Below the pieces are notes generated by a model. It was not told the origin of the DNA, did no database searches, and saw only the letters and a list, made by a program, of their open reading frames with translations. A DNA stretch of 64,000 nt from Brachionus manjavacas (taxonomy: Eukaryota > Rotifera > Eurotatoria > Ploima > Brachionidae): positions 78,501 to 142,500 of the forward strand of contig JAHQIY010000050.1 of assembly GCA_019054805.1 (NCBI GenBank). The letters run 5' to 3'. Positions 32 through 64,000 of the stretch are shown here, in pieces; positions within the stretch are counted from its first letter, which is position 1, and each line of letters starts with the position of its first letter. Position numbers and translations under genes: made by a program.

Positions 32-32
32 G

Positions 33-4400: not shown

Positions 4401-4406
4401 AGGATT

Positions 4407-5640: not shown

Positions 5641-5642
5641 AT

Positions 5643-7980: not shown

Positions 7981-7984
7981 TTTT

Positions 7985-9430: not shown

Positions 9431-9447
9431 ATTTTGAAAATCTTAAT

Positions 9448-24179: not shown

Positions 24180-24183
24180 TTCA

Positions 24184-25600: not shown

Positions 25601-25613
25601 GACAAACTTAATA

Positions 25614-25661
25614 CCTAGATTTTTTTTTTCTTGATACTGAAATATCAGCGAAAAATCTAGG
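25614..25661 (-). mobile_element. Helentron hairpin terminus next to telomere repeats
   Basis: Read on the minus strand it is CCTAGATTTTTCGCTGATAT, TTCAGTATCAAG, an A run and ATCTAGG: the same hairpin as at 47-94. It is followed inward by TATTAAGTTTGTCGTG and then, without the GTCC microsatellite, by the Rep remnant, so a deletion has removed the sub-terminal part. Confidence 0.85.
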
Positions 25662-25662
25662 T

Positions 25663-25676
25663 CACCCTAACCCTAA
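25663..25676 (-). repeat. Interstitial telomere repeats, C-strand on plus
   Basis: CACCCTAACCCTAA directly abuts the Helentron hairpin. On the minus strand this is TTAGGGTTAGGGTG running into CCTAG, the same orientation relative to the element as at 33-46 and 53,093-53,116. Confidence 0.75.
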
Positions 25677-31082: not shown

Positions 31083-31145
31083 AGTTAACTAAATATTGGT
31101 AACTTGTAAATTTGAATCTTCTATTCTCTATTCTAAGTGTTATTT
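31083..31145 (-). promoter_or_regulatory. Shared 5' flank of the VLIG copies
   Basis: The bases before the start codon are the same in all copies (31,083-31,135; 35,253-35,305; 46,045-46,100 inverted; 51,555-51,610 altered) and lead straight into the 530-base satellite. It must contain the 5' UTR and perhaps the promoter, or the promoter is inside the satellite. No TATA box or initiator was singled out in this AT-rich DNA. Confidence 0.4.
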
Positions 31146-35252: not shown

Positions 35253-35299
35253 AGTTAACTAAATATTGGTAACTTGTAAATTTGAATCTTCTATTCTCT

Positions 35300-40900: not shown

Positions 40901-43900
40901 TATAAATGAATAAAAAAAAGAGTTTAAGTTAAAAAATCTAATTAATTTTCAGTTAAAGGATAATAGTTGGAATATAGACTATTTTTCTAAATGATATTTA
41001 AATAGTAACTTAAAAGTTTCTTTAAATTATTATTAATTGACTGTTGCAATAACCGTAATAAGCTTCTGGTTCTTGTTTGATAGCGTAATTAATCATTGTT
41101 TTTTAAATATTAATGCCTTCCATAAATATTAATTAACTATCGAATAAAAAAATCTATAAAAATCAAACCTTGGAGATACGGGGTTACCACGGTGATAAAC
41201 AATAACAATTGTATGGAATTTTTAAACAAAATTATTTTTTACTAATTTAAAACATTTAAAAATAACACTAAGAATAGGAATTTTAAATTTTTATATTTTA
41301 TTATTTATAAGCAGAAGACTTTTTTCTAAATTGAAATTCTGTTTTTATTCCATGTTAATTTAAAATTTCAGATAATTTTTAAGCCGACTTCATGTTCAGT
41401 TCGAAGCATTTAAAACAAATTACTTAAGTATAAATGAATAAAAAAAAAGAGTTTAAGTTAAAAAATCTAATTAATTTTCAGTTAAAGGATAATAGTTGGA
41501 ATATAGACTATTTTTTTAAATGATATTAAAATAGTAACTTAAAAGTTTCTTTAAATTATTATTAATTGACTGTTGCAATAACCGTAATAAGCTTCTGGTT
41601 CTTGTTTGATAGCGTAATTAATCATTGTTTTTTAAATATTAATGCCTTCCATAAATATTAATTAACTATCGAATAAAAAAATCTAAAAAAATCAAACCTT
41701 GGAGATACGGGGTTACCACGGTGATAAACAATAACAATTGTATGGAATTTTTTAAACAAAATTATTTTTTACTAATTTAAAACATTTAAAAATAACACTA
41801 AGAATAGGAATTTTAAATTTTTATATTTTATTATTTATAAGCAGAAGACTTTTTTTCTAAATTGAAATTCTGTTTTTATTCCATGTTAATTTAAAATTTC
41901 AGATAATTTTTAAGCCGACTTCATGTTCAGTTCGAAGCATTTAAAACAAATTACTTAAGTATAAATGAATAAAAAAAAAGAGTTTAAGTTAAAAAATCTA
42001 ATTAATTTTCAGTTAAAGGATAATAGTTGGAATATAGACTATTTTTTAAATGATATTAAAATAGTAACTTAAAAGTTTCTTTAAATTATTATTAATTGAC
42101 TGTTGCAATAACCGTAATAAGCTTCTGGTTCTTGTTTGATAGCGTAATTAATCATTGTTTTTAAATATTAATGCCTTCCATAAATATTAATTAACTATCG
42201 AATAAAAAAATCTATAAAAATCAAACCTTGGAGATACGGGGTTACCACGGTGATAAACAATAACAATTGTATGGAATTTTTTAAACAAAATTATTTTTTA
42301 CTAATTTAAAACATTTAAAAATAACACTAAGAATAGGAATTTTAAATTTTTATATTTTATTATTTATAAGCAGAAGACTTTTTTTCTAAATTGAAATTCT
42401 GTTTTTATTCCATGTTAATTTAAAATTTCAGATAATTTTTAAGCCGACTTCATGTTCAGTTCGAAGCATTTAAAACAAATTACTTAAGTATAAATGAATA
42501 AAAAAAAGAGTTTAAGTTAAAAAATCTAATTAATTTTCAGTTAAAGGATAATAGTTGGAATATAGACTATTTTTAAATGATATTAAAATAGTAACTTAAA
42601 AGTTTCTTTAAATTATTATTAATTGACTGTTGCAATAACCGTAATAAGCTTCTGGTTCTTGTTTGATAGCGTAATTAATCATTGTTTTTTAAATATTAAT
42701 GCCTTCCATAAATATTAATTTACTATCGAATAAAAAATCTAAAAAAATCAAACCTTGGAGATACGGGGTTACCACGGTGATAAACAATAACAATTGTATG
42801 GAATTTTTTAAACAAAATTATTTTTTACTAATTTAAAACATTTAAAAATAACACTAAGAATAGGAATTTTAAATTTTTATATTTTATTATTTATAAGCAG
42901 AAGACTTTTTTTCTAAATTGAAATTCTGTTTTTATTCCATGTTAATTTAAAATTTCAGATAATTTTTAAGCCGACTTCATGTTCAGTTCGAAGCATTTAA
43001 AACAAATTACTTAAGTATAAATGAATAAAAAAAAAGAGTTTAAGTTAAAAAATCTAATTAATTTTCAGTTAAAGGATAATAGTTGGAATATAGACTATTT
43101 TTTTAAATGATATTAAAATAGTAACTTAAAAGTTTCTTTAAATTATTATTAATTGACTGTTGCAATAACCGTAATAAGCTTCTGGTTCTTGTTTGATAGC
43201 GTAATTAATCATTGTTTTTTTAAATATTAATGCCTTCCATAAATATTAATTTACTATCGAATAAAAAAATCTAAAAAAATCAAACCTTGGAGATACGGGG
43301 TTACCACGGTGATAAACAATAACAATTGTATGGAATTTTTTAAACAAAATTATTTTTTACTAATTTAAAACATTTAAAAATAACACTAAGAATAGGAATT
43401 TTAAATTTTTATATTTTATTATTTATAAGCAGAAGACTTTTTTTTCTAAATTGAAATTCTGTTTTTATTCCATGTTAATATAAAATTTCAGATAATTTTT
43501 AAGCCGACTTCATGTTCAGTTCGAAGCATTTAAAACAAATTACTTAAGTATAAATGAATAAAAAAAAGAGTTTAAGTTAAAAAATCTAATTAATTTTCAG
43601 TTAAAGGATAATAGTTGGAATATAGACTATTTTTTTAAATGATATTTAAATAGTAACTTAAAAGTTTCTTTAAATTATTATTAATTGACTGTTGCAATAA
43701 CCGTAATAAGCTTCTGGTTCTTGTTTGATAGCGTAATTAATCATTGTTTTTTTAAATATTAATGCCTTCCATAAATATTAATTAACTATCGAATAAAAAA
43801 ATCTAAAAAAATCAAACCTTGGAGATACGGGGTTACCACGGTGATAAACAATAACAATTGTATGGAATTTTTTAAACAAAATTATTTTTTACTAATTTAA

Positions 43901-46040
43901 AACATTTAAAAATAACACTAAGAATAGGAATTTTAAATTTTTATATTTTATTATTTATAAGCAGAAGACTTTTTTCTAAATTGAAATTCTGTTTTTATTC
44001 CATGTTAATTTAAAATTTCAGATAATTTTTAAGCCGACTTCATGTTCAGTTCGAAGCATTTAAAACAAATTACTTAAGTATAAATGAATAAAAAAAAAAG
44101 AGTTTAAGTTAAAAAATCTAATTAATTTTCAGTTAAAGGATAATAGTTGGAATATAGACTATTTTTTTAAATGATATTTAAATAGTAACTTAAAAGTTTC
44201 TTTAAATTATTATTAATTGACTGTTGCAATAACCGTAATAAGCTTCTGGTTCTTGTTTGATAGCGTAATTAATCATTGTTTTTTTAAATATTAATGCCTT
44301 CCATAAATATTAATTAACTATCGAATAAAAAAATCTATAAAAATCAAACCTTGGAGATACGGGGTTACCACGGTGATAAACAATAACAATTGTATGGAAT
44401 TTTTAAACAAAATTATTTTTTACTAATTTAAAACATTTAAAAATAACACTAAGAATAGGAATTTTAAATTTTTATATTTTATTATTTATAAGCAGAAGAC
44501 TTTTTTTTCTAAATTGAAATTCTGTTTTTATTCCATGTTAATTTAAAATTTCAGATAATTTTTAAGCCGACTTCATGTTCAGTTCGAAGCATTTAAAACA
44601 AATTACTTAAGTATAAATGAATAAAAAAAAAAGAATCTAAGTTAAAAAATCTAATTAATTTTCAGTTAAAGGATAATAGTTGGAATATAGACTATTTTTC
44701 TAAATGATATTTAAATAGTAACTTAAAAGTTTCTTTAAATTATTATTAATTGACTGTTGCAATAACCGTAATAAGCTTCTGGTTCTTGTTTGATAGCGTA
44801 ATTAATCATTGTTTTTTTAAATATTAATGCCTTCCATAAATATTAATTAACTATCGAATAAAAAATCTAAAAAAATCAAACCTTGGAGATACGGGGTTAC
44901 CACGGTGATAAACAATAACAATTGTATGGAATTTTTTAAACAAAATTATTTTTTACTAATTTAAAACATTTAAAAATAACACTAAGAATAGGAATTTTAA
45001 ATTTTTATATTTTATTATTTATAAGCAGAAGACTTTTTTTCTAAATTGAAATTCTGTTTTTATTCCATGTTAATTTAAAATTTCAGATAATTTTTAAGCC
45101 GACTTCATGTTCAGTTCGAAGCATTTAAAACAAATTACTTAAGTATAAATTAATAAAAAAAAAAAGAGTTTAAGTTAAAAAATCTAATTAATTTTCAGTT
45201 AAAGGATAATAGTTGGAATATAGACTATTTTTCTAAATGATATTTAAATAGTAACTTAAAAGTTTCTTTAAATTATTATTAATTGACTGTTGCAATAACA
45301 GTAATAAGCTTCTGAATCTTGTTTGATAGCGTAATTAATCATTGTTTTTAAATATTAATGCCTTCCATAAATATTAATTAACTATCGAATAAAAAAATCT
45401 ATAAAAATCAAACCTTGGAGATACGGGGTTACCACGGTGATAAACAATAACAATTGTATGGAATTTTTTAAACAAAATTATTTTTTACTAATTTAAAACA
45501 TTTAAAAATAACACTAAGAATAGGAATTTTAAATTTTTATATTTTATTATTTATAATCAGCAGACATTTTTTTCTAAATTGAAATTCTGTTTTTATTCCA
45601 TGTTAATTTAAAATTTCAGATAATTTTTAAGCCGACTTCATGTTCAGTTCGAAGCATTTAAAACAAATTACTTAAGTATAAATTAATAAAAAAAAAAGAG
45701 TTTAAGTTAAAAAATCTAATTAATTTTCAGTTAAAGGATAATAGTTGGAATATAGACTATTTTTCTAAATGATATTTAAATAGTAACTTAAAAGTTTCTT
45801 TAAATTATTATTAATTGACTGTTGCAATAACAGTAATAAGCTTCTGAATCTTGTTTGATAGCGTAATTAATCATTGTTTTTAAATATTAATGCCTTCCAT
45901 AAATATTAATTAACTATCGAATAAAAAAATCTATAAAAATCAAACCTTGGAGATACGGGGTTACCACGGTGATATACAATAACAATTGTATGGAATTTTT
46001 TAAACAAAATTATTTTTTACTAATTTAAAACATTTAAAAA
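37906..46040 (-). repeat. 530-base satellite, block 4 (about 15 monomers, - orientation)
   Basis: The longest uninterrupted run. Landmarks GTGATAAACAATAAC occur at 38,011, 38,542, 39,071, 39,599, 40,132 and so on. The monomers nearest the VLIG copy 3 carry AACAGTAATAAGCTTCTGAA in place of AACCGTAATAAGCTTCTGGT, the same variant as next to copies 1 and 2, so that variant marks the gene-proximal monomer. No gene in this block. Confidence 0.95.
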
Positions 46041-46100
46041 TAACACTTAGAATAGAGAATAGAAGATTCAAATTTACAAGTTACCAATATTTAGTTAACT

Positions 46101-46748
46101 ATGATTGGAAATTCGAAAAAAGAAGAGTCAAATAATGTTGTCGAAAGTATTAAATTAAACAAAGTTTCAGAAATTATAAAAATATTTGAAAATGATTGTT
46201 CTGAAAAAAGTATTTCGTTTAAAAAATGCAACAACGCCAAACTTTCCCGAAACGTGAGAAAAGATATAAATGAAAATAAAAATACTCAATTGTCATTAGA
46301 AGAAAAAAACATAAGAGAAGATTCAAACCAAAAAGCTGAGAACATTCAGGTTATGATTGAAAATCCTAAAATAGGAGAAATAAATGAAGCGGTAGAAATA
46401 ACTCAATTTACCAAATTTTTGGATCTTAAAAAAATGATGAGTTTAAAAAGTCCAAATCCTGATCAGTTTGAAATTGAATTTAACAAAATAATTCTTGAAG
46501 AATTAAATGCCGAAGACTTGGTTAAATGGTTTAAAAATGGGAAATCACTACCGTCTGAACTCAAACCATATCTTTTGGACAATTTGAAAAGAATCAAGCG
46601 ATTTGATTCAATAATAAAACAACTATCTAAAATAGCTTACTGCAATGCCAGCATTGATTCAAAAACTAAACAACTCCTTGAATTTAAAATTCCTATTCTT
46701 AGTGTTATTTTTAAATGTTTTAAATTAGTAAAAAATAATTTTGTTTAA
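46101..46748 (+). pseudogene. VLIG copy 3, residues 1-194 fused to satellite
   Basis: Residues 1-194 equal the start of the complete gene; after QLLE the frame continues for 21 codons in satellite sequence (FKIPILSVIFKCFKLVKNNF, V) before a stop. Orientation is opposite to copies 1 and 2. It lacks every catalytic part. The same satellite-derived tail is present in copy 4, so the fusion happened once and was then duplicated. Confidence 0.85.
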
Positions 46749-48538
46749 AAAATTCCATACAATTGTTATTGTTTATCACCGTGGTAACCCCGTATCTCCA
46801 AGGTTTGATTTTTATAGATTTTTTTATTCGATAGTTAATTAATATTTATGGAAGGCATTAATATTTAAAAAAACAATGATTAATTACGCTATCAAACAAG
46901 AACCAGAAGCTTATTACGGTTATTGCAACAGTCAATTAATAATAATTTAAAGAAACTTTTAAGTTACTATTTAAATATCATTTAGAAAAATAGTCTATAT
47001 TCCAACTATTATCCTTTAACTGAAAATTAATTAGATTTTTAACTTAAACTCTTTTTTTTATTCATTTATACTTAAGTAATTTGTTTTAAATGCTTCGAAC
47101 TGAACATGAAGTCGGCTTAAAAATTATCTGAAATTTTAAATTAACATGGAATAAAAACAGAATTTCAATTTAGAAAAAAAAGTCTTCTGCTTATAAATAA
47201 TAAAATATAAAAATTTAAAATTCCTATTCTTAGTGTTATTTTTAAATGTTTTAAATTAGTAAAAAATAATTTTGTTTAAAAAATTCCATACAATTGTTAT
47301 TGTTTATCACCGTGGTAACCCCGTATCTCCAAGGTTTGATTTTTATAGATTTTTTATTCGATAGTTAATTAATATTTATGGAAGGCATTAATATTTAAAA
47401 AAACAATGATTAATTACGCTATCAAACAAGAACCAGAAGCTTATTACGGTTATTGCAACAGTCAATTAATAATAATTTAAAGAAACTTTTAAGTTACTAT
47501 TTAAATATCATTTAGAAAAATAGTCTATATTCCAACTATTATCCTTTAACTGAAAATTAATTAGATTTTTTAACTTAAACTCTTTTTTTATTCATTTATA
47601 CTTAAGTAATTTGTTTTAAATGCTTCGAACTGAACATGAAGTCGGCTTAAAAATTATCTGAAATTTTAAATTAACATGGAATAAAAACAGAATTTCAATT
47701 TAGAAAAAAGTCTTCTGCTTATAAATAATAAAATATAAAAATTTAAAATTCCTATTCTTAGTGTTATTTTTAAATGTTTTAAATTAGTAAAAAATAATTT
47801 TGTTTAAAAAATTCCATACAATTGTTATTGTTTATCACCGTGGTAACCCCGTATCTCCAAGGTTTGATTTTTTTAGATTTTTTTATTCGATAGTTAATTA
47901 ATATTTATGGAAGGCATTAATATTTAAAAAAACAATGATTAATTACGCTATCAAACAAGAACCAGAAGCTTATTACGGTTATTGCAACAGTCAATTAATA
48001 ATAATTTAAAGAAACTTTTAAGTTACTATTTTAATATCATTTAAAAAAATAGTCTATATTCCAACTATTATCCTTTAACTGAAAATTAATTAGATTTTTT
48101 AACTTAAACTCTTTTTTTTATTCATTTATACTTAAGTAATTTGTTTTAAATGCTTCGAACTGAACATGAAGTCGGCTTAAAAATTATCTGAAATTTTAAA
48201 TTAACATGGAATAAAACAGAATTTCAATTTAGAAAAAAAGTCTTCTGCTTATAAATAATAAAATATAAAAATTTAAAATTCCTATTCTTAGTGTTATTTT
48301 TAAAATGTTTTAAATTAGTAAAAAATAATTTTGTTTAAAAAATTCCATACAATTGTTATTGTTTATCACCGTGGTAACCCCGTATCTCCAAGGTTTGATT
48401 TTTTTAGATTTTTTTATTCGATAGTTAATTAATATTTATGGAAGGCATTAATATTTAAAAAAACAATGATTAATTACGCTATCAAACAAGAACCAGAAGC
48501 TTATTACGGTTATTGCAACAGTCAATTAATAATAATTT
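46680..48538 (+). repeat. 530-base satellite, block 5 (about 3.5 monomers, + orientation)
   Basis: Begins at the VLIG copy 3 breakpoint (within GAATTTAAAATTCC) and is cut in mid-monomer after AATTAATAATAATTT, where telomere repeats start. Confidence 0.9.
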
Positions 48539-48587
48539 GGGGTTAGGGTTTAGGTTAGGGTTAGGGTTAGGGTTAGGGTTAGGGTTA
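48539..48587 (+). repeat. Interstitial telomere tract (TTAGGG), about 8 units
   Basis: GGGGTTAGGGTTTAGGTTAG followed by five to six perfect GGGTTA units, then TTAAAACATTT of the satellite in opposite orientation. The G-rich strand points away from the + oriented satellite, as in a right chromosome end. Confidence 0.95.
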
Positions 48588-50790
48588 AAACATTTAAAAA
48601 TAACACTAAGAATAGGAATTTTAAATTTTTATATTTTATTATTTATAAGCAGAAGACTTTTTTTTCTAAATTGAAATTCTGTTTTTATTCCATGTTAATT
48701 TAAAATTTCAGATAATTTTTAAGCCGACTTCATGTTCAGTTCGAAGCATTTAAAACAAATTACTTAAGTATAAATGAATAAAAAAAAGAGTTTAAGTTAA
48801 AAAATCTAATTAATTTTCAGTTAAAGGATAATAGTTGGAATATAGACTATTTTTTTAAATGATATTAAAATAGTAACTTAAAAGTTTCTTTAAATTATTA
48901 TTAATTGACTGTTGCAATAACCGTAATAAAGCTTCTGGTTCTTGTTTGATAGCGTAATTAATCATTGTTTTTTTAAATATTAATGCCTTCCATAAATATT
49001 AATTAACTATCGAATAAAAAAATCTAAAAAAAATCAAACCTTGGAGATACGGGGTTACCACGGTGATAAACAATAACAATTGTATGGAATTTTTTAAACA
49101 AAATTATTTTTTACTAATTTAAAACATTTAAAAATAACACTAAGAATAGGAATTTTAAATTTTTATATTTTATTATTTATAAGCAGAAGACTTTTTTTTC
49201 TAAATTGAAATTCTGTTTTTATTCCATGTTAATTTAAAATTTCAGATAATTTTTTAAGCCGACTTCATGTTCAGTTCGAAGCATTTAAAACAAATTACTT
49301 AAGTATAAATGAATAAAAAAAAAAGAGTTTAAGTTAAAAAATCTAATTAATTTTCAGTTAAAGGATAATAGTTGGAATATAGACTATTTTTTTAAATGAT
49401 ATTTAAATAGTAACTTAAAAGTTTCTTTAAATTATTATTAATTGACTGTTGCAATAACCGTAATAAGCTTCTGGTTCTTGTTTGATAGCGTAATTAATCA
49501 TTGTTTTTTTAAATATTAATGCCTTCCATAAATATTAATTAACTATCGAATAAAAAAATCTATAAAAATCAAACCTTGGAGATACGGGGTTACCACGGTG
49601 ATAAACAATAACAATTGTATGGAATTTTTTAAACAAAATTATTTTTTTACTAATTTAAAACATTTAAAAATAACACTAAGAATAGGAATTTTAAATTTTT
49701 ATATTTTATTATTTATAAGCAGAAAGACTTTTTTTTCTAAATTGAAATTCCTGTTTTTATTCTCCATGTTAATTCTTAAAATTTCAGATAATTTTTAAGC
49801 CGACTTTCATGTTCAGTTCGGAAGTACGATTTAAAACAAAATTACTTAAGTATAAAATGAATAAAAAAAAAGAGTTTAAGTTAAAAAAAATCTAATTAAT
49901 TTCAATTGTTAATAGGATAATAGTTGGAATTATAGACTATTTTTCTTAAATGATATTTTAAATAGTAACTTAAAAGTTTCTTTTTAAATTATTATTAATT
50001 GACTGTTGCAATAACCGTAATAAAGCTTCTGGTTCTTGTTTGATAAAGCGTAATTAATCATTGTTTTTTTAAATATTAATGCCTGCCATAAATATTAATT
50101 AACTATCGAATAAAAAAATCTATAAAAATCAAACCTTGGAGATACGGGGTTACCACGGTGATAAACAATAACAATTGTATGGAATTTTTTAAACAAAATT
50201 ATTTTTTACTAATTTAAAACATTTAAAAATAACACTAAGAATAGGGAATTTTAAATTTTTCATATGTTTAGTTATTTATAAGCAGAAGACTTTTTTTCTA
50301 AATTGAAATTCTGTTTTTATTCCATGTTAATTTAAAATTTCAGATAATTTTTAAGCCGACTTCATGTTCAGTTCGAAGCATTTAAAACAAATTACTTAAG
50401 TATAAATGAATAAAAAAAAAGAGTTTAAGTTAAAATCTAATTAATTTTCAGTTAAAGGATAATGGTTGGAATATAGACTATTTTTCTAAATGATATTTAA
50501 ATAGTAACTTAAAAGTTTTTTAAATTATTATTAATTGACTGTTGCAATAACCGTAATAAGCTTCTGGTTCTTGTTTGATAGCGTAATTAATCATTGTGTT
50601 TTTAAATATTAATGCCTTCCATAAATATTAGGATTTAACTATCGAATAAAAAAATCTATAAAAATCAAACCTTGGAGATGCAGGGTTACCACGGTGATAA
50701 ACAATAACAATTGTATGGGAATTTTTTAAACAAAATTATTTTTTACTAATTTAAAACATTTAAAAATAACACTAAGAATAGGAATTTTAA
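48588..50790 (-). repeat. 530-base satellite, block 6 (about 4 monomers, - orientation)
   Basis: Begins in mid-monomer at AAAACATTTAAAAATAACAC directly after the telomere tract. From about 49,690 on, many single-base insertions and substitutions appear that are rare elsewhere. A repeat-derived 66-codon frame at 49,598 is not considered a gene. Confidence 0.9.
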
Positions 50791-51575
50791 ATTCAAGGAG
50801 TTGTTTAGTTTTTGAATCAATGCTGGCATTGCAGTAAGCTATTTTAGATAGTTGTTTTATTATTGAATCAAATCGCTTGATTCTTTTCAAATTATCCAAA
50901 AGATATGGTTTGAGTTCAGACGGTAGTGATTTCGCATTTTCAAACCATTTGGCAAGTCTTCGGCATTTTAATTCTTCAAGAATTGTTTTGTTAAATTCAA
51001 TTTCAAACTGATCAAGATTTGGACTTTTTAAACTCATCATTTTTTTAAGATCCAAAAATTTGGTAAATTGAGTTATTTCTACCGCTTTATTTGCTATCCT
51101 ATTTTAGGATTTTCAATCATAACCTGAATGTTCTCAGCTTTTTGGTTTGAATCTTCTCTTATGTTTTTTTCTTCTAATGACAATTGAGTATTTTTATTTT
51201 CATTTATATCTTTTCTCACGTTTCGGGAAAGTTTGGCGTTGTTGCATTATTTTTAAATGAAATACTTTAAATTCAGTAAACAATCATTTTGTTCAAATAT
51301 TTTTATACAATTGTTATTGTTTTATCACCGTGGTAACCCCGTATCTCCAAGGTTTGATTTTTTTATAGATTTTTATTCGATAGTTAATTAATATTTATGG
51401 GAAGGCATTAATATTTAAAAAAACAATGATTAATTACGCTATCAAACAAGAACCAGAAGCTTATTACGGTTATTGCAACAGTCAATTTCTGAAACTTTGT
51501 TTAGATTTAATACTTTCGACAACATTATTTGACTCTTCTTTTTTTCAATTCAATCATAGTTAACTAAATATTGGT
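50726..51575 (-). pseudogene. VLIG copy 4, worn fragment with satellite insertion
   Basis: 50,790-51,300 corresponds to residues ~38-194 of the complete gene with many substitutions and frameshifts, and carries the same 21-codon satellite tail as copy 3. 51,488-51,575 holds the remaining N-terminus and start region. Between them lies a piece of satellite (51,300-51,487). Confidence 0.8.
51300..51487 (+). repeat. Satellite fragment inserted in VLIG copy 4
   Basis: About 185 bases from ACAATTGTTATTG to GCAACAGTCAATTT replace nothing but split the VLIG sequence TTTTTATAATTTCTGAAAC at its ATAATT. Confidence 0.8.
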
Positions 51576-51609
51576 AACTTGTAAATTTGAATCTTTCCTA
51601 TTCCTCTAT

Positions 51610-53092
51610 TCTAAGTATTTATTTTTAAATGTTTTAAATTAGTAAAAAATAATTTTGTTTAAAAAATTCCATACAATTGTTATTGTATATCACCGTAGTA
51701 ACGTATCTCAAGGTTTGATTTTTATGATTTTTTATTCGATAGTTAATTAATATTTATGAAGGCATTAATATTTAAAAAAACAATGATTAATTACGCTATC
51801 AAACAAGATTCAGAAGCTTATTACTGTTATTGCAACAGTCAATTAATAATAATTTAAAGAAACTTTTAAGTTACTATTTAAATATCATTTAGAAAAATAA
51901 GTCTATATTCAACTATTATCCTTTAACTGAAAATTCATTAGATTTTTTAACTTAAACTCTTTTTTTTTTGTTGTTTATACTTAAAGCAATTTGTTTTAAA
52001 TGCTCGAACTGAACATGAAGTCGGCTTAAAAATTTTAAATTAACATGGAGATAAAACAGAGATTTCAATTTTAAAAGTCTTCTGCTTATAAATAATAAAA
52101 TATCAAAAATTTAAAAAATTCTATTCTTAGTGTTATTTTTAAATGTTTTAAATTAGTAAAAAATAATTTTGTTTAAAAAAATTCCATACAATTGTTATTG
52201 TTTATCACCGTGGTAGCGCTATCTCCAAGGTTTGATTTTTTTAGATTTTTATTCGATAGTTAATATTTATGGAAGGCATTTAATATTTAAAAAAAAACAA
52301 TGATTAATTACGCCAAAGAACAAAAACTTATTACGGTTATTGCAACAGTCAATTAATAATAATTTAAAAGAGCTTTGAGTTACTATTTTAATATCATTTA
52401 GAAAAAATAGTCTGTATTCCAACTATTATCCTTTTAACGAAAATTAATTAGATTTTTTAACTTAAGATTCTTTTTTTTTTTTTATTCATTTATACTTAAG
52501 TAATTTGTTTTAAATGCTTTCGAAAAACTGAACATGAAAGTCGAGCTTAAAAAATTATCTGAAATTTAAATTGGCATGGAATAAAAACGGAAATTTCCCA
52601 GAAAAAGTCTTCTGCTTATAAATAATAAAATGTAAAAATTTAAAATTCCTATTCTTGGTGTTATTTTTAAATGTTTTAAATTAGTAAAAAATAATTTTGT
52701 TTAAAAAATTCCATACAATTGTTATTGTTTATCACCGTGGTAACCCCGTATCTCCAAGGTTTGATTTTTATAGATTTTTTTATTTGATAGTTTTTTAATA
52801 TTTATGGAAAGGCATTAATATTTAAAAAAACAATGATTAATTACGCTATCAAACAAGAACCAGAAGCTTATTACGGTTATTGCAACAGTCAATTAATAAT
52901 AATTTAAAGAAACTTTTAAGTTATTATTTAAATATCATTTAAAAAAATAGTCTATATTCCAACTATTATCCTTTAACTGAAAATTAATTAGATTTTTTAA
53001 CTTAAACTCTTTTTTTTTTATTCATTTATACTTAAGTAATTTGTTTTAAATGCTTCGAACTGAACATGAAGTCGGCTTAAAAATTATCTGAA
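51610..53092 (+). repeat. 530-base satellite, block 7 (about 3 monomers, + orientation)
   Basis: The first two monomers (to about 52,620) are rich in small indels; the last is normal. It is cut in mid-monomer after AAAAATTATCTGAA, where telomere repeats begin. Confidence 0.9.
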
Positions 53093-53116
53093 GGGTTTAG
53101 GGTTAGGGTTAGGGTT
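53093..53116 (+). repeat. Interstitial telomere tract between satellite and Helentron array
   Basis: GGGTTTAGGGTTAGGGTTAG followed by GGTT joins the truncated satellite to the Helentron hairpin (GCCTAGATTTTTCGC). Confidence 0.95.
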
Positions 53117-53446
53117 GCCTAGATTTTTCGCTGATATATGAATATCAAGAAAAAAAAAATCTAGGTATTACGTTTGTCGTGTCCGTCCGTCCGTCCGTCC
53201 GTCCGTCTGTGGACACATCTAACCCTAGTTTTTAGATGTTAACCCTAGTTTTAAAAATGACAAAAAATATGTCGATCGATAGCATTGAATACATAAAAGG
53301 CGCGAAAAATCTAGGCAATCTAATTTTTTAAAAATTAAACTTTAAATCGATCAATCACTAAAACAAAAATATTATTCAAAAAGATTAAAGTAATAAAAAA
53401 TTTATTGACAACAAAAGTATGAACTAAATAAGATAAAAAAAGAGAA

Positions 53447-53758
53447 TTAAAATGTGATCTCGGTGAAAATAGCCTGATGATCACTGAACCATGTTGAATA
53501 TGGCTGTGATTTAAATTGACCAAAGAATGTGACTTGCTCGTTAGACACCAATCCAATTGAGACATATCCTTGAAAAGTTAAACATTTGCTAAACACGGGT
53601 GTCATGTTCAAATTGTCTCTTAGCGTATCAAGATATTTAGAATTGTTTTCTCTATTAAAGTCAATATTGAAATCACCTAAGATTACCAAAGAGTCTTGGC
53701 TGTGCAAATTTAAATTCAAAAAGGCAATCAACTCTTGAATAAACTTGTCATTGTCCAT
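53447..53758 (-). pseudogene. EEP endonuclease C-terminal fragment, unit 1
   Basis: It starts MDNDKFIQELIAFLNLNLHS and has GDFNIDF and WFSDHQAIF. Between them an extra A and a missing A further on put about 16 codons out of frame, so the SQLDWC motif is lost although the frame stays open. Coordinates include the part out of frame. Upstream the frame continues to a stop through NSTVVYFLNLYKHPK. Confidence 0.75.
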
Positions 53759-54219
53759 CTTTGGATGCTTGTAAAGATTTAAAAAATAAACAACTGTTGA
53801 ATTTAGAAAAGATTCAGCCTTTTAAATTGGTTTTTCTAATATATATTATATAATTTTATTTTTACTTTTAAAAAAAAACTATTTCAAATAACCAAAATTG
53901 TTAATTATGGAATGGTTATTAATGACATTGTATGGTGATGCAAATACAATCATTATTTAAAAATTCGTCAACATAATTTTTTTTTATCGATTTTTTTCCT
54001 AGCAACTAAAATTAATTTTTAGAAATTATTATAAATTATTTTGTTGCAATATTTTTAGTTAAAAATCGGGTTTTTTTTTTCAAATTAAATAAAGAAAAAA
54101 CAATTTGAAAAACATATTGTGTGCTTCATAGAATTTCATTTATATATTTCGAAAAAAATGGGGCGCAAAAAATAAGAAAGATTTAACATAAATATTCTCA
54201 TAAATAAATTCTTAAATCA

Positions 54220-54551
54220 TAATCCAAAAAAATAATTAATTGTTTGAGTTAAACCACTTATTGGTACAGGGTTCCGGTTAGGGAATTGCTCTAATTGATA
54301 GAAAAATAAAATTAGTGAGAACGGGGTCCGGGGCGGAGCCCTATTTTAGGAGTTCCGGGTATGCAGTAAGCTAGAGAACCATTAGTAAAAATTACTATTA
54401 TTTTTGAATGTTAAATAATCTAAAAAATTATTAGTAATTATTTTAGCATAAATATTCTCATAAATAAATTCTTAAATCTTAATCCAAAAAAATAATTAAT
54501 TGTTTGCGTTAAACCACTTATTGGTACAGGGTTCCGGTTAGGGAATTGCTC
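54220..54551 (+). repeat. 259-base monomer block of unit 1
   Basis: One complete and one partial monomer: TTAATCCAAAAAAATAATTA, GTTAAACCACTTATTGGTAC, GGGTTCCGGTTAGGG, a GC-rich hairpin GGGGCGGAGCCCT and GTATGCAGTAAGCTAGAGAA. Confidence 0.85.
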
Positions 54552-54563
54552 GGGGTTAGGGTT
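54552..54563 (+). repeat. Short telomeric tract before array unit 2
   Basis: GGGGTTAGGGTT separates the truncated monomer of unit 1 from the hairpin of unit 2. Confidence 0.8.
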
Positions 54564-54893
54564 GCCTAGATTTTTCGCTGATATATGAATATCAAGAAAA
54601 AAAAAATCTAGGTATTACGTTTGTCGTGTCCGTCCGTCCGTCCGTCCGTCCGTCTGTGGACACATTTAACCCTAGTTTTTAGATGTTAACCCTAGTTTTA
54701 AAAATGACAAAAAATATGTCGATCGATAGCATTGAATACATAAAAGGCGCGAAAAATCTAGGCCATCTAATTTTTTAAAAATTAAACTTTAAATCGATCA
54801 ATCACTAAAACAAAAATATTAATCAAAAAGATTAAAGTAATAAAAAATTTATTGACAACAAAAGTATGAACTAAAAAAGAAAAAAAAAGAGAA

Positions 54894-55202
54894 TTAAAAT
54901 GTGATCTCGGTGAAAATAGCCTGATGATCACTGAACCATGTTGAATATGGCTGTGATTTAAATTGACCAAAAGAATGTGACTTGCTCGTTAGACACCAAT
55001 CCAATTGAGACATATCCTTGAAAGTTAAACATTTGCTAAACACGGGTGTCATGTTCAAATTGTCTCTTAGCGTATCAAGATATTTAGAATTGTTTTCTCT
55101 ATTAAAGTCAATATTGAAATCACCAAAGATTACCAAAAGAGTCTTGGCTGTGCAAATTTAAATTCAAAAAGGCAATCAACTCTTGAATAAACTTGTCATT
55201 GT
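54894..55202 (-). pseudogene. EEP endonuclease C-terminal fragment, unit 2
   Basis: GDFNIDF, SQLDWC and WFSDHQAIF are present, but an extra A near 55,136 breaks the frame just after MDND...SQD. Otherwise the same as in units 3-5. Confidence 0.8.
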
Positions 55203-55649
55203 CCATCTTTGGATGCTTGTAAAGATTTAAAAAATAAACAACTGTTGAATTTAGAAAAGATTCAGCCTTTTAAATTGGTTTTTCTAATATATATTATATA
55301 ATTTTATTTTTACTTTTAAAAAAACTATTTCAAATAACCAAAATTGTTAATTATGGAATGGTTATTAATGACATTGTATGGTGATGCAAATACAATCATT
55401 ATTTAAAAATTCGTCAACATAATTTTTTTTTATCGATTTTTTTCCTAGCAACTAAAATTAATTTTTAGAAATTATTATAAATTATTTTGTTGCAATATTT
55501 TTAGTTAAAAATCGGGTTTTTTTTCAAATTAAATAAAGAAAAAACAATTTGAAAAACATATTGTGTGCTTCATAGAATTTCATTTATATATTTCGAAAAA
55601 AATGGGGCGCAAAAAATAAGAAAGATTTAACATAAATATTCTCATAAAT

Positions 55650-56898
55650 AAATTCTTAAATCATAATCCAAAAAAATAATTAATTGTTTGAGTTAAACCA
55701 CTTATTGGTACAGGGTTCCGGTTAGGGAATTGCTCTAATTGATAGAAAAAAAAAATTAGTGAGAACGGGGTCCGGGGCGGAGCCCTGGTTTAGGGTTCCG
55801 GGTATGCAGTAAGCTAGAGAACCATTAGTAAAAATTACTATTATTTTTTGAATGTTAAATAATCTAAAAAATTATTAGTAATTATTTTAGCATAAATATT
55901 CTCATAAATTAATTCTAAAATCTTAATCCAAAAAAATAATTAATTGTTTGCGTTAAACCACTTATTGGTACAAGGTTCCGGTTAGGGAATTGCTCTAATT
56001 GATAGAAAAATAAAATTAGTGAGAACGGGGTCCGGGGCGGAGCCCTGGTTTAGGGTTCCGGGTATGCAGTAAGCTAGAGAACCATTAGTAAAAATTACTA
56101 TTATTTTTGAATGTTAAATAATCTAAAAAATTATTAGTAATTATTTTAGCATAAATATTCTCATAAATAAATTCTTAAATCTTAATCCAAAAAAATAATT
56201 AATTGTTTGCGTTAAACCACTTATTGGTACAGGGTTCCGGTTAGGGAATTGCTCTAATTGATAGAAAAATAAAATTAGTGAGAACGGGGTCCGGGGCGGA
56301 GCCCTGTTTTAGGGTTCCGGGTATGCAGTAAGCTAGAGAACCATTAGTAAAAATTACTTTTATTTTTGAATGTTAAATAATCTAAAAAATTATTAGTAAT
56401 TATTTTAGCATAAATATTCTCATAAATAAATTCTTAAATCTTAATCCAAAAAATAATTAATTGTTTGCGTTAAACCACTTATTGGTACAGGGTTCCGGTT
56501 AGGGAATTGCTCTAATTGATAGAAAAAAAAATTAGTGAGAACGGGGTCCGGGGCGGAGCCCTATTTTTAGGGTTCCGGGTATGCAGTAAGCTAGAGAACC
56601 ATTAGTAAAAATTACTATTATTTTTGAATGTTAAATAATCTAAAAAATTATTAGTAATTATTTTAGCATAAATATTCTCATAAATAAATTCTTAAATCTT
56701 AATCCAAAAAAATAATTAATTGTTTGCGTTAAACCACTTATTGGTACAGGGTTCCGGTTAGGGAATTGCTCTAATTGATAGAAAAAAAAAATTAGTGAGA
56801 ACGGGGTCCGGGGCGGAGCCCTAGTTTAGGGTTCCGGGTATGCAGTAAGCTAGAGAACCATTAGTAAAAATTACTATTATTTTTGAATGTTAAATAAT
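55650..56898 (+). repeat. 259-base monomers of unit 2 (five copies)
   Basis: The first monomer has TTTGAGTTAAACC, the others TTTGCGTTAAACC, a regular higher-order pattern seen in every unit. Differences concentrate in the A run after TTGATAG and in the bases after GGAGCCCT. Confidence 0.9.
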
Positions 56899-57249
56899 GG
56901 GTTGCCTAGATTTTTCGCTGATATATGAATATCAAGAAAAAAAATCTAGGTATTACGTTTGTCGTGTCCGTCCGTCCGTCCGTCCGTCCGTCCGTCCGTC
57001 CGTCCGTCTGTGGACACATCTAACCCCTAGTTTTTAGATGTTAACCCTAGTTTTAAAAATGACAAAAAATATGTCGATCGATAGCATTGAATACATAAAA
57101 AGGCGCGAAAAATCTAGGCCATCTAATTTTTTAAAAATTAAACTTTAAATCGATCAATCACTAAAACAAAAATATTAATCAAAAAGATTAAAGTAATAAA
57201 AAATTTATTGACAACAAAAGTATGAACTAAAAAAGAAAAAAAAAGAGAA

Positions 57250-57561
57250 TTAAAATGTGATCTCGGTGAAAATAGCCTGATGATCACTGAACCATGTTGA
57301 ATATGGCTGTGATTTAAATTGACCAAAAGAATGTGACTTGCTCGTTAGACACCAATCCAATTGAGACATATCCTTGAAAGTTAAACATTTGCTAAACACG
57401 GGTGTCATGTTCAAATTGTCTCTTAGCGTATCAAGATATTTAGAATTGTTTTCTCTATTAAAGTCAATATTGAAATCACCAAAGATTACCAAAGAGTCTT
57501 GGCTGTGCAAATTTAAATTCAAAAAGGCAATCAACTCTTGAATAAACTTGTCATTGTCCAT
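57250..57561 (-). CDS. EEP endonuclease C-terminal fragment, unit 3 (103 codons)
   Basis: The open frame MDNDKFIQELIAF... holds the distal EEP motifs GDFNIDF, SQLDWC and WFSDHQAIF in frame, followed by a stop. The N-terminal Asn and Glu motifs are missing, so it cannot be a working nuclease alone. The sequence is identical in units 3, 4 and 5. Array homogenisation explains identity without selection. Confidence 0.5.
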   Translation of the reverse strand: MDNDKFIQELIAFLNLNLHSQDSLVIFGDFNIDFNRENNSKYLDTLRDNLNMTPVFSKCLTFKDMSQLDWCLTSKSHSFGQFKSQPYSTWFSDHQAIFTEITF

Positions 57562-57989
57562 CTTTGGATGCTTGTAAAGATTTAAAAAATAAACAACTGT
57601 TGAATTTAGAAAAGATTCAGCCTTTTAAATTGGTTTTTTCTAATATATATTATATAATTTTATTTTTACTTTTAAAAAAACTATTTCAAATAACCAAAAT
57701 TGTTAATTATGGAATGGTTATTAAAGACATTGTATGGTGATGCAAATACAATCATTATTTAAAAATTCGACAACAAAATTTTTTTTATCGATTTTTTCCT
57801 AGCAACTAAAATTAATTTTTAGAAATTATTATAAATTATTTTGTTGCAATATTTTTAGTTAAAAATCGGGTTTTTTTTCAAATTAAATAAAGAAAAAACA
57901 ATTTGAAAAACATATTGTGTGCTTCATAGAATTTCATTTATATATTTCGAAAAAAATGGGTCGCAAAAATAAAAAAGATTTTAGCATAA

Positions 57990-59256
57990 ATATTCTCATA
58001 AATAAATTCTTAAATCATAATCCAAAAAAATAATTAATTGTTTGAGTTAAACCACTTATTGGTACAGGGTTCCGGTTAGGGAATTGCTCTAATTGATAGA
58101 AAAAAAAAATTAGTGAGAACGGGGTCCGGGGCGGAGCCCTGTTTTAGGGTTCCGGGTATGCAGTAAGCTAGAGAACCATTAGTAAAAATTACTATTATTT
58201 TTGAATGTTAAATAATCTAAAAAATTATTAGTAATTATTTTAGCATAAATATTCTCATAAATAAATTCTTAAATCTTAATCCAAAAAAATAATTAATTGT
58301 TTGCGTTAAACCACTTATTGGTACAGGGTTCCGGTTAGGGAATTGCTCTAATTGATAGAAAAAAATAATTAGTGAGAACGGGGTCCGGGGCGGAGCCCTG
58401 GTTTAGGAGTTCGGGTATGCAGTAAGCTAGAGAACCATTAGTAAAAATTACTATTATTTTTGAATGTTAAATAATCTAAAAAATTATTAGTAATTATTTT
58501 AGCATAAATATTCTCATAAATAAATTCTTAAATCTTAATCCAAAAAAATAATTAATTGTTTGCGTTAAACCACTTATTGGTACAGGGTTCCGGTTAGGGA
58601 ATTGCTCTAATTGATAGAAAAAAAAAATTAGTGAGAACGGGGTCCGGGGCGGAGCCCTATTTTTAGGAGTTCGGGTATGCAGTAAGCTAGAGAACCATTA
58701 GTAAAAATTACTATTATTTTTGAATGTTAAATAATCTAAAAAATTATTAGTAATTATTTTAGCATAAATATTCTCATAAATAAATTCTTAAATCTTAATC
58801 CAAAAAAATAATTAATTGTTTGCGTTAAACCACTTATTGGTACAGGGTTCCGGTTAGGGAATTGCTCTAATTGATAGAAAAAAAAAAAATTAGTGAGAAC
58901 GGGGTCCGGGGCGGAGCCTGGCCTAAGGGTTCCGGGTATGCAGTAAGCTAGAGAACCATTAGTAAAAATTACTATTATTTTTGAATGTTAAATAATCTAA
59001 AAAATTATTAGTAATTATTTTATCATAAATATTCTCATAAATAAATTCTTAAATCTTAATCCAAAAAAATAATTAATTGTTTGCGTTAAACCACTTATTG
59101 GTACAGGGTTCCGGTTAGGGAATTGCTCTAATTGATAGAAAAAAAAAAATAGTGAGACCGGGGTCCGGGGCGGAGCCCTGGTTTAGGAGTTCCGGGTATG
59201 CAGTAAGCTAGAGAACCATTAGTAAAAATTACTATTATTTTTGAATGTTAAATAAT
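57990..59256 (+). repeat. 259-base monomers of unit 3 (five copies)
   Basis: Same as in unit 2; the fourth has GGAGCCTGGCCTAAGGG where others have GGAGCCCTGTTTTAGGG or similar. Confidence 0.9.
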
Positions 59257-59599
59257 GGGTTGCCTAGATTTTTCGCTGATATATGAATATCAAGAAAAAA
59301 AAATCTAGGTATTACGTTTGTCGTCCGTCCGTCCGTCCGTCCGTCCGTCCGTCCGTCCGTCTGTGGACACATCTAACCCTAGTTTTTAGATGTTAACCCT
59401 AGTTTTAAAAATGACAAAAAATATGTCGATCGATAGCATTGAATACATAAAAGGCGCGAAAAATCTAGGCCATCTAATTTTTTAAAAATTAAACTTTAAA
59501 TCGATCAATCACTAAAACAAAAATATTAATCAAAAAGATTAAAGTAATAAAAAATTTATTGACAACAAAAGTATGAACTAAAAAAGAAAAAAAAGAGAA

Positions 59600-59911
59600 T
59601 TAAAATGTGATCTCGGTGAAAATAGCCTGATGATCACTGAACCATGTTGAATATGGCTGTGATTTAAATTGACCAAAAGAATGTGACTTGCTCGTTAGAC
59701 ACCAATCCAATTGAGACATATCCTTGAAAGTTAAACATTTGCTAAACACGGGTGTCATGTTCAAATTGTCTCTTAGCGTATCAAGATATTTAGAATTGTT
59801 TTCTCTATTAAAGTCAATATTGAAATCACCAAAGATTACCAAAGAGTCTTGGCTGTGCAAATTTAAATTCAAAAAGGCAATCAACTCTTGAATAAACTTG
59901 TCATTGTCCAT
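59600..59911 (-). CDS. EEP endonuclease C-terminal fragment, unit 4 (103 codons)
   Basis: Identical in translation to the fragment in unit 3, with the same distal EEP motifs and the same missing N-terminal half. Confidence 0.5.
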   Translation of the reverse strand: MDNDKFIQELIAFLNLNLHSQDSLVIFGDFNIDFNRENNSKYLDTLRDNLNMTPVFSKCLTFKDMSQLDWCLTSKSHSFGQFKSQPYSTWFSDHQAIFTEITF

Positions 59912-60334
59912 CTTTGGATGCTTGTAAAGATTTAAAAAATAAACAACTGTTGAATTTAGAAAAGATTCAGCCTTTTAAATTGGTTTTTCTAATATATATT
60001 ATATAATTTTATTTTTACTTTTAAAAAAAACTATTTCAAATAACCAAAATTGTTAATTATGGAATGGTTATTAATGACATTGTATGGTGATGCAAATACA
60101 ATCATTATTTAAAAATTCGTCAACATAATTTTTTTATCGATTTTTTTCCTAGCAACTAAAATTAATTTTTAGAAATTATTATAAATTATTTTGTTGCAAT
60201 ATTTTTTAGTTAAAAATCGGGTTTTTTTTTCAAATTAAATAAAGAAAAAAACAATTTGAAAAACATATTGTGTGCTTCATAGAATTTCATTTATATATTT
60301 CGAAAAAAATGGGGCGCAAAAAATAAGAAAGATT

Positions 60335-61600
60335 TAACATAAATATTCTCATAAATAAATTCTTAAATCATAATCCAAAAAAATAATTAATTGTTTGAGT
60401 TAAACCACTTATTGGTACAGGGTTCCGGTTAGGGAATTGCTCTAATTGATAGAAAAAAAAATTAGTGAGAACGGGGTCCGGGGCGGAGCCCTTTTAGGAG
60501 TTCCGGGTATGCAGTAAGCTAGAGAACCATTAGTAAAAATTACTATTATTTTTGAATGTTAAATAATCTAAAAAATTATTAGTAATTATTTTAGCATAAA
60601 TATTCTCATAAATTAATTCTAAAATCTTAATCCAAAAAAATAATTAATTGTTTGCGTTAAACCACTTATTGGTACAAGGTTCCGGTTAGGGAATTGCTCT
60701 AATTGATAGAAAAAAAAAATTAGTGAGAACGGGGTCCGGGGCGGAGCCCTATTTTAGGAGTTCCGGGTATGCAGTAAGCTAGAGAACCATTAGTAAAAAT
60801 TACTATTATTTTTGAATGTTAAATAATCTAAAAAATTATTAGTAATTATTTTAGCATAAATATTCTCATAAATAAATTCTTAAATCTTAATCCAAAAAAA
60901 TAATTAATTGTTTGCGTTAAACCACTTATTGGTACAGGGTTCCGGTTAGGGAATTGCTCTAATTGATAGAAAAATAAAATTAGTGAGAACGGGGTCCGGG
61001 GCGGAGCCTATTTTAGGGTTCCGGGTATGCAGTAAGCTAGAGAACCATTAGTAAAAATTACTATTATTTTTGAATGTTAAATAATCTAAAAAATTATTAG
61101 TAATTATTTTAGCATAAATATTCTCATAAATAAATTCTTAAATCTTAATCCAAAAAAATAATTAATTGTTTGCGTTAAACCACTTATTGGTACAGGGTTC
61201 CGGTTAGGGAATTGCTCTAATTGATAGAAAAAAAATTAGTGAGAACGGGGTCCGGGGCGGAGCCCTATTTTAGGGTTCCGGGTATGCAGTAAGCTAGAGA
61301 ACCATTAGTAAAAATTACTATTATTTTTGAATGTTAAATAATCTAAAAAATTATTAGTAATTATTTTAGCATAAATATTCTCATAAATAAATTCTTAAAT
61401 CTTAATCCAAAAAAATAATTAATTGTTTGCGTTAAACCACTTATTGGTACAGGGTTCCGGTTAGGGAATTGCTCTAATTGATAGAAAAAAAAATTAGTGA
61501 GAACGGGGTCCGGGGCGGAGCCCTATTTTAGGAGTTCGGGTATGCAGTAAGCTAGAGAACCATTAGTAAAAATTACTATTATTTTTGAATGTTAAATAAT
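60335..61600 (+). repeat. 259-base monomers of unit 4 (five copies)
   Basis: Same higher-order pattern; the first two monomers share the variant ATTAATTCTAAAATCTTAAT and ACAAGGTTCC with those of units 2 and 5. Confidence 0.9.
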
Positions 61601-61954
61601 GGGTTGCCTAGATTTTTCGCTGATATATGAATATCAAGAAAAAAAAAATCTAGGTATTACGTTTGTCGTGTCCGTCCGTCCGTCCGTCCGTCCGTCCGTC
61701 CGTCCGTCCGTCCGTCTGTGGACACATCTAACCCTAGTTTTTAGATGTTAACCCTAGTTTTAAAAATGACAAAAAATATGTCGATCGATAGCATTGAATA
61801 CATAAAAGGCGCGAAAAATCTAGGCCATCTAATTTTTTAAAAATTAAACTTTAAATCGATCCAATCACTAAAACAAAAATATTAATCAAAAAGATTAAAG
61901 TAATAAAAAATTTATTGACAACAAAAGTATGAACTAAAAAAGAAAAAAAGAGAA

Positions 61955-62266
61955 TTAAAATGTGATCTCGGTGAAAATAGCCTGATGATCACTGAACCAT
62001 GTTGAATATGGCTGTGATTTAAATTGACCAAAAGAATGTGACTTGCTCGTTAGACACCAATCCAATTGAGACATATCCTTGAAAGTTAAACATTTGCTAA
62101 ACACGGGTGTCATGTTCAAATTGTCTCTTAGCGTATCAAGATATTTAGAATTGTTTTCTCTATTAAAGTCAATATTGAAATCACCAAAGATTACCAAAGA
62201 GTCTTGGCTGTGCAAATTTAAATTCAAAAAGGCAATCAACTCTTGAATAAACTTGTCATTGTCCAT
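61955..62266 (-). CDS. EEP endonuclease C-terminal fragment, unit 5 (103 codons)
   Basis: Identical in translation to the fragments in units 3 and 4. Confidence 0.5.
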   Translation of the reverse strand: MDNDKFIQELIAFLNLNLHSQDSLVIFGDFNIDFNRENNSKYLDTLRDNLNMTPVFSKCLTFKDMSQLDWCLTSKSHSFGQFKSQPYSTWFSDHQAIFTEITF

Positions 62267-62699
62267 CTTTGGATGCTTGTAAAGATTTAAAAATAAACAA
62301 CTGTTGAATTTAGAAAAGATTCAGCCTTTTAAATTGGTTTTTCTAATATATATTATATAATTTTATTTTTACTTTTAAAAAAACTATTTCAAATAACCAA
62401 AATTGTTAATTATGGAATGGTTATTAATGACATTGTATGGTGATGCAAATACAATCATTATTTAAAAATTCGTCAACATAATTTTTTTATCGATTTTTTT
62501 CCTAGCAACTAAAATTAATTTTTAGAAATTATTATAAATTATTTTGTTGCAATATTTTTAGTTAAAAATCGGGTTTTTTTTTCAAATTAAATAAAGAAAA
62601 ACAATTTGAAAAACATATTGTGTGCTTCATAGAATTTCATTTATATATTTCGAAAAAAATGTGGAGCAAAAAATAAGAAATATATAAAATAAATATTAA

Positions 62700-63954: not shown

Positions 63955-64000
63955 GGGTTGCCTAGATTTTTCGCTGATATATGAATATCAAGAAAAAAAA
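63955..64000 (+). mobile_element. Helentron array unit 6, cut by window end
   Basis: GGGTTGCCTAGATTTTTCGC and the first part of the hairpin are present, so the array continues beyond the window. Confidence 0.9.

What the first reader, a model, noticed from the sequence alone, without database searches (positions are those of the whole stretch)
53085..53125. Helentron terminus joined to the distal end of a telomere tract that caps a broken satellite
Seen: the 530-base satellite is cut in mid-monomer, about four TTAGGG units follow, then the Helentron hairpin begins. The same order (broken sequence, TTAGGG, element terminus, with the G strand running into the element) is found at 31-47, 54,552-54,565 and, inverted, 25,661-25,676. 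Inference: chromosome ends were healed by telomerase and a Helentron then attached to or inserted in the telomere in one orientation. That would be a telomere-targeting rolling-circle transposon building subtelomeres, comparable in outcome to yeast Y' elements.
Basis: partly seen in the sequence, partly recalled or inferred. Interest (0 to 1): 0.88.

Follow-up and report, generated by a model that had tools for sequence, protein, structure and literature searches.

The report
Jumping genes attached to chromosome ends
In what is probably a rotifer genome, several kinds of a rolling-circle jumping gene are joined, at one exact base of their own end, to short telomere repeats that cap broken DNA, which suggests that they dock on healed chromosome ends and build the regions next to them.

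Summary
In the 114 Mb genome the terminus core occurs 187 times; 168 carry GGGTTG directly in front, 106 of these as one amplified array junction. Of 58 distinct junction keys held, 40 have at least two telomeric units, 16 one GGGTT, 2 do not fit. The DNA before the tract differs: a cut satellite, other DNA, or the element itself cut at many positions. At least five terminus variants share the outer hairpin stem, differ in the loop and join at the same base, GGGTT|GCCTAG. For variant B, listed without asking for telomere, 12 of 12 copies do so and 9 of 12 have two or more units. A 2143 aa Rep-helicase frame follows one B terminus. One contig ends in 0.9 kb of telomere on a cut array. Best reading: a Helentron group whose Rep joins the element's 5' end to the telomeric G-strand 3' end; spread by recombination between tracts is the main rival. 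Family A points outward, B does not consistently. Helitrons enriched at nematode chromosome ends are in print; my searches showed no paper describing this junction.

The parts
32..46 (+). telomeric tract GGGTTTAGGGGGTTG in front of an A' terminus
47..9486 (+). decayed A' Helentron: terminus 47-94, Rep-helicase region about 737-6353 (coding on minus), UCH-side match 6723-7206, piece of the 259-bp repeat 9437-9486
   Evidence: blastn 71-73% to the C18 element over 737-6353 and 66% over 6723-7206; frames
9488..9776 (+). remnant of a B-like terminus that follows the cut 259-bp repeat
23240..25594 (+). rearranged Helentron pieces; PIF1 and a weak Helitron_like_N match at 24390-25106 (minus; the second is below its Pfam cut-off)
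25598..25661 (-). inverted A'' terminus, 64 bases, fused to the piece above
25662..25676 (-). telomeric tract TTAGGGTTAGGGTGA in front of the inverted terminus
31123..53092 (.). 530-bp satellite blocks in both orientations; the last monomer is cut at 53092
   Evidence: blastn of one monomer against the window
48540..48587 (+). telomeric tract between head-to-head satellite blocks, no element
53093..53117 (+). telomeric tract on the cut satellite: the junction of the finding
53118..53165 (+). family A terminus hairpin
53181..53207 (+). GTCC microsatellite beside the terminus
53302..53315 (-). inverted subterminal copy of the first 14 bases of the terminus
53118..54551 (+). non-autonomous family A unit, cut within the 259-bp repeat at its far end; endonuclease remnant on minus
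54552..54564 (+). telomeric tract GGGGTTAGGGTTG on the cut unit
54565..64000 (+). tandem family A units (termini at 54565, 56905, 59263, 61607, 63961), with 259-bp repeats from 55626; runs to the contig end

Best explanation
This is a group of Helentrons (rolling-circle transposons with Rep, helicase and endonuclease) that lives by docking on chromosome ends. Shown: at least five terminus variants are joined at GGGTT|GCCTAG to telomeric tracts that lie on cut DNA; element bodies end at many different places and carry a tract and the next element there; one contig ends in telomere on a cut array. Inferred: a chromosome end erodes or breaks and telomerase adds TTAGGG/TTTAGGG; the HUH Rep, holding the element's 5' end, transfers it to the telomeric G-strand 3'-OH after ...GGGTT, which offers the TT that Helentrons prefer. 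Nothing lies beyond a chromosome end, so the far end stays free, erodes, is capped by telomerase and receives the next element. Rolling-circle multimers or unequal exchange make the tandem arrays.
For: 58 distinct junction keys: 40 with two or more telomeric units, 16 with one GGGTT. Same base in variants A, A', B, B', C, D; B, listed without asking for telomere, 12 of 12. Upstream is the element itself, cut at many positions, in 28 of 58 keys and other DNA in 30 of 58. A family B element sits on a family A end cut after 443 bases with a 33-base tract between. C52 ends in telomere on a 259-bp repeat cut in mid-unit. Interstitial tracts and the C52 end have the same TTAGGG/TTTAGGG mixture. Tracts of two or more units meet the terminus at 40 places but the telomere-like motifs of the 259-bp repeat at only 3 and 2, although the first motif has 526 copies. 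Terminus forms a DNA hairpin in 7 of 7 variants, z -2.8 to -5.3. 2143 aa frame with Helitron_like_N and PIF1. TT target and a hairpin or subterminal repeat at the 5' end are on record for Helentron-like elements (passages).
Against: No enzyme activity, reads or strains were seen. Two keys do not fit: GGTTG only at C16:2,069,031, and TTTTGA at C30:323,488 and 471,192. 16 keys have only one GGGTT, which could belong to the element. Family B orientation is mixed; 12 of 171 placed family A copies are internal. The gene runs antisense to the joined end, so calling it the 5' end is inference. Of 8 further contig ends fetched, none shows terminal telomere and one reads N. Ten of the 187 family A copies were neither classed by pattern nor read.
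Confidence: 0.6

Rival explanations
1. Spread by recombination. One or a few Helentrons once entered a telomere; later, broken ends that telomerase had given a short tract invaded an existing tract-terminus junction on another chromosome and copied everything to the end (break-induced replication, as for yeast Y' or ALT). The transposase plays no current part.
For: A tract meets the GGTTAGGG motif inside the 259-bp repeat at 3 places, one read in full (L111), and the other motif at 2. Several junction keys recur in more than one place. Explains subtelomeric position and orientation.
Against: The repeat's telomere-like motif has 526 copies and yet is met far less often than the terminus, 40 places. 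At least five variants with different bodies share the exact joining base. Many keys have only GGGTT, little to recombine with. A long existing tract-terminus junction could still be a preferred donor, so this is not excluded.
Confidence: 0.25
2. Ordinary Helentron insertion into TT inside telomere arrays, both ends joined, followed by loss of the distal telomere.
For: TT is the recorded Helentron target (passages) and TTAGGG arrays are full of TT.
Against: Far ends of the cut elements lie at many positions, and the tract after them starts in different phases; I saw no shared far end followed by AGGG, apart from the amplified AATAAT|GGGTTG array junction, which is not followed by AGGG.
Confidence: 0.1
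3. Assembly or library artefact, or GGGTTG is simply part of the element and the longer tracts are chance or local slippage.
For: GGGTTG is nearly invariant. C19 holds an inverted repeat of the same junctions and C11 starts in N, so the assembly has weak spots.
Against: Tract length runs up to 113 bases with telomerase-like variation. The same form recurs in at least five variants and many contigs. Exact (TTAGGG)2 has shuffle mean 0.00.
Confidence: 0.05

Closest known systems
Helentrons and their non-autonomous HINE/DINE-1 elements (PMC4067079, passages)
   Same: Helitron_like_N and PIF1 domains, endonuclease frames behind them, terminal hairpin, inverted subterminal copy, microsatellite and tandem repeats inside non-autonomous copies, TT at the joining base
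   Different: joined to telomere tracts on one side, no shared far end seen, subtelomeric; gene antisense to the joined end (on record as a rare case)
Helitron-like elements of the Oscheius tipulae telomere extensions (PMC8022731, passages) and Helitrons at Caenorhabditis chromosome ends (PMC13370393, passages)
   Same: rolling-circle elements concentrated at chromosome ends
   Different: those passages report location, not a base-exact junction with telomere repeats or repeated attachment; other phylum
Terminons / telomere-associated Penelope-like elements of bdelloid rotifers (PMC6431247, passages)
   Same: attached to telomere repeats at one end, truncated by telomere repeats at the other, head-to-tail arrays, rotifer
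   Different: retroelements with reverse transcriptase and hammerhead ribozyme; here Rep-helicase, and no Rfam match at the gathering threshold in the window
HeT-A/TART of Drosophila and SART of Bombyx (recalled; SART1 paper PMC7265360 seen in a listing)
   Same: end attachment or telomere-repeat targeting
   Different: non-LTR retrotransposons
Yeast Y' elements (recalled)
   Same: helicase-coding subtelomeric repeats with telomere tracts between copies
   Different: spread by recombination; no HUH Rep or hairpin end known to me

Membership tests
Helentron | Rep (Helitron_like_N) and PIF1-type helicase in one protein | tested here: met
   2143 aa frame in C18, E 9.8e-26 and 2.8e-33
Helentron | endonuclease domain behind the helicase | tested here: inconclusive
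   endonuclease-like stretches in two frames behind the helicase, no Pfam run on them; the Brachionus relative P0002 carries PF14529
Helentron | terminal hairpin and inverted subterminal copy | tested here: met
Helentron | insertion at TT | tested here: met
   GGGTT|G in 12 of 12 B copies and 168 of 187 A copies; the exact cut base is inferred
Helentron | defined second end with an empty site | tested here: not met
   no shared far end found apart from the AATAAT array junction; empty sites could not be sought. Filed as a variant for this reason
telomere-attaching transposon (works like Terminons, HeT-A) | one end joined to telomere repeats at a fixed base | tested here: met
   56 of 58 keys end in at least one telomeric G run, in nearly all of them as GGGTT
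telomere-attaching transposon (works like Terminons, HeT-A) | other end variable and capped by telomere | tested here: met
   28 self-cut keys; C52 end
Terminon / Penelope-like element | reverse transcriptase and hammerhead ribozyme | tested here: not met
   no Rfam match at the gathering threshold in the window; no reverse transcriptase among Pfam matches of the 10 window and 3 C18 frames scanned
yeast Y' | spread by homologous recombination between ends | not testable with these tools
   needs several strains or reads

The most novel reading that the evidence does not exclude
A DNA transposon that performs one-ended transposition: its Rep uses the chromosome's own telomeric 3' overhang as acceptor, no 3' end or second strand transfer is needed, and replication from the nick may run off the chromosome end and carry along whatever lies distal. 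Together with telomerase it would form a second, DNA-based way of extending chromosome ends.
Probability: 0.35. Interest if true: 0.93.

Novelty: new variant of a known kind. Interest (0 to 1): 0.8.

Why it matters
The transposons known to me that extend or colonise telomeres by targeted attachment are retroelements. A rolling-circle DNA transposon doing the same, with a base-exact junction, would mean that a Rep nuclease can use a chromosome end as its target. It would offer a mechanism for the Helitron enrichment reported at nematode chromosome ends and would make questions on how subtelomeres grow directly testable in a small animal with an element that looks recently active.

Tried and rejected
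Considered: 47-25,661 as one 25.6 kb element with inverted ends. Rejected: the left part is one decayed Helentron that ends near 9,486, and the right end is a rearranged piece. Considered: a virus or linear plasmid with telomeric ends. Rejected because the G strand runs into the element, not out of it. Considered: Penelope-like elements with hammerhead ribozymes; no Rfam match at the gathering threshold. I first took the 2143 aa frame in C18 as family A; it belongs to a family B element that sits on a family A end cut after 443 bases. Naming the host from another window frame failed: one unnamed hit at 34%. The host as a Brachionus-like rotifer rests only on the hits of the element's protein. 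A script left out C19, six C30 copies and the large arrays; one search recounts with them.

Limits of the counts: of 187 family A copies (up to 2 mismatches), 168 were classed by exact pattern and nine others were read; ten were not seen. Families B', C, D and part of A were found with patterns that require telomere, so their rates are biased. The 58 keys include two pairs of inverted duplicates (56 if merged). Some keys counted as two units may owe part of the tract to the 259-bp repeat, which itself contains GGTTTAGGGTT (L055, L063 rows). In one search one 'self' key (L049) rests on a 28-base match, and one 'other' key (L028, second row) is a terminus cut after a few bases; that case could also be a 20-base slippage.

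Full report
Setting. The window is the last 64 kb of contig C50 (78,501-142,500 of 142,500) of a 114 Mb genome in 61 contigs. The best named relatives of the element's protein are from Brachionus calyciflorus, 56-57% identity, so the host is probably a monogonont rotifer; this is inference from a transposon protein.

Observation. At the main one a 530-bp satellite monomer stops at 53,092, a 25-base tract follows, and the hairpin terminus starts at 53,118. Exact (TTAGGG)2 occurs 7 times in the window, shuffle mean 0.00; the terminus core 8 times, shuffle mean 0.00. A further tract (48,540-48,587) lies between head-to-head satellite blocks without an element, so tracts also mark what look like plain fusions.

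Genome-wide. The 20-base core occurs 187 times with up to 2 mismatches, 0 for the reversed control. GGGTTG directly precedes 62 copies that have A, C or G before it and 106 copies as AATAATGGGTTG, together 168. The 106 are tandem array copies and count as one amplified junction. An exact TTAGGG within 5 bases of the end is found at 43 places. The held loci give 58 distinct keys of family and upstream DNA: 40 with two or more telomeric units, 16 with one GGGTT, 2 without a fit. The 2 are GGTTG at C16:2,069,031, and TTTTGA at C30:323,488 and 471,192.

Position and orientation. Of the 171 family A copies that I could place out of 187, 101 are within 130 kb of the end of a long contig and point outward, 2 point inward (both in an inverted repeat at the start of C19), 12 are internal (C1, C6, C30), and 56 are on contigs under 200 kb. 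Most of the 101 are array copies in C18, C27 and C28. Family B is mixed: 6 outward, 4 inward, 2 internal.

Independent families. A pattern for a tract followed by TTGCCTAGAT gave 40 places. Reading them showed further terminus variants, B, B', C and D, which share the outer stem and the joining base but differ in the loop. For B the genome was then listed without asking for telomere: 12 copies. All 12 have GGGTT(T)G and 9 have two or more units, with 12 different upstream sequences. Seven variants fold as single-stranded DNA hairpins with z from -2.8 to -5.3; the inner stems pair although their letters differ.

What is cut. Upstream of the tract lies the element itself in 28 of 58 keys, cut at many positions, and other DNA in 30 of 58. 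In C18 a family A end cut after 443 bases carries a 33-base tract and then a family B element. At the end of C52 a 259-bp repeat is cut in mid-unit and about 0.9 kb of mixed TTAGGG/TTTAGGG with irregular units runs to the contig end; the interstitial tracts have a like mixture. Of eight other contig ends fetched, none shows terminal telomere: C18, C27, C28, C14 and C57 stop inside repeat or terminus, C4 and C17 in other sequence, C11 in N. So C52 is the only capped element end that I saw.

The element. The family B copy in C18 has a 2143 aa frame with matches to DUF6570, Helitron_like_N, PIF1 and UvrD_C_2, and a UCH match in the frame upstream. HVHM and GGAGTGKS stretches are visible in it (motif meaning recalled). 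Endonuclease-like frames follow, broken by a frame change. Helitron_like_N gives 83 matches in the genome; 17 share one score of 99.4 bits, with open frames of up to 1571 aa, and 16 of these 17 lie on C52 or within about 52 kb of a contig end. In nine cases checked, the match starts 4,329-4,356 bases beyond a family A terminus. The window itself holds only decayed or rearranged coding copies.

Which end is joined. The gene is antisense to the joined end. In Helentrons and the Fusarium FoHeli elements the 5' end has a hairpin or subterminal repeat a few bases in; FoHeli3-5 start with TGCCT, and inverted gene orientation is on record (PMC4067079, PMC5148889; passages). I therefore read the joined end as the 5' end, the end that a Rep would transfer. 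This is inference. By the same anatomy the inverted copy 185-200 bases in could mark an old 3' end that is bypassed; this was not tested.

Mechanism. The recorded Helentron target is TT. A telomeric G overhang ending in GGGTT offers it as a free 3' end. Joining the element's 5' end there explains the exact base, the outward orientation of family A, and the lack of a shared far end. Test against plain homology: telomere tracts meet the GGTTAGGG motif of the 259-bp repeat at 3 places and its TTTAGGGTT motif at 2, although the first motif has 526 copies, against 40 tract-terminus junctions. This favours an end-specific process, but existing long tract-terminus junctions could also attract recombination, so that rival stays open.

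Literature. Searches of the open library led to Helitron-like elements largely limited to telomere extensions in Oscheius tipulae (PMC8022731, passages) and Helitron enrichment at Caenorhabditis chromosome ends (PMC13370393, passages). Bdelloid Terminons are the closest way of life (PMC6431247, passages). Passages of PMC4522978, PMC6872716 and PMC9071541 gave no such junction. In the listings and passages that I saw, no paper describes a telomere-repeat junction of a Helitron or Helentron; most subscription papers are not in the library.

Noticed in passing
window 48,540-48,587: A 48-base telomeric tract at the centre of head-to-head 530-bp satellite blocks: looks like a fusion of a healed end with another satellite end.
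   Followed up: partly
window 55,626-63,954: The 259-bp repeats of the array carry telomere-like motifs (CCGGTTAGGGAATTG and TGGTTTAGGGTTCC); 526 exact copies of the first in the genome. They may act as extra landing or recombination sites.
   Followed up: partly
L030 346-1065 minus (C18:1,323,066-1,323,786): A 240 aa frame with a long hydrophobic stretch near its end, upstream of the UCH and Rep-helicase frames; no Pfam match.
   Followed up: no
window 16,384-18,738: Frame with a Ulp1-type peptidase (C48) and a RING-type match.
   Followed up: no
window 26,025-31,088 minus and 33,195-35,258 minus: 1687 aa frame with a URGCP-like GTPase match; the 687 aa frame has one distant unnamed relative that carries GTPase domains.
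   Followed up: partly
G000:C19:6,271-45,436: Two junctions occur twice in opposite orientation with the same upstream DNA: an inverted repeat at the contig start, either an assembly fold-back or a real palindrome.
   Followed up: no
G000:C30:437-466 kb: Six A' termini at about 5-6 kb spacing inside a contig share one upstream junction: an amplified unit that contains a telomere tract; the G run before TTG varies from 3 to 5.
   Followed up: partly
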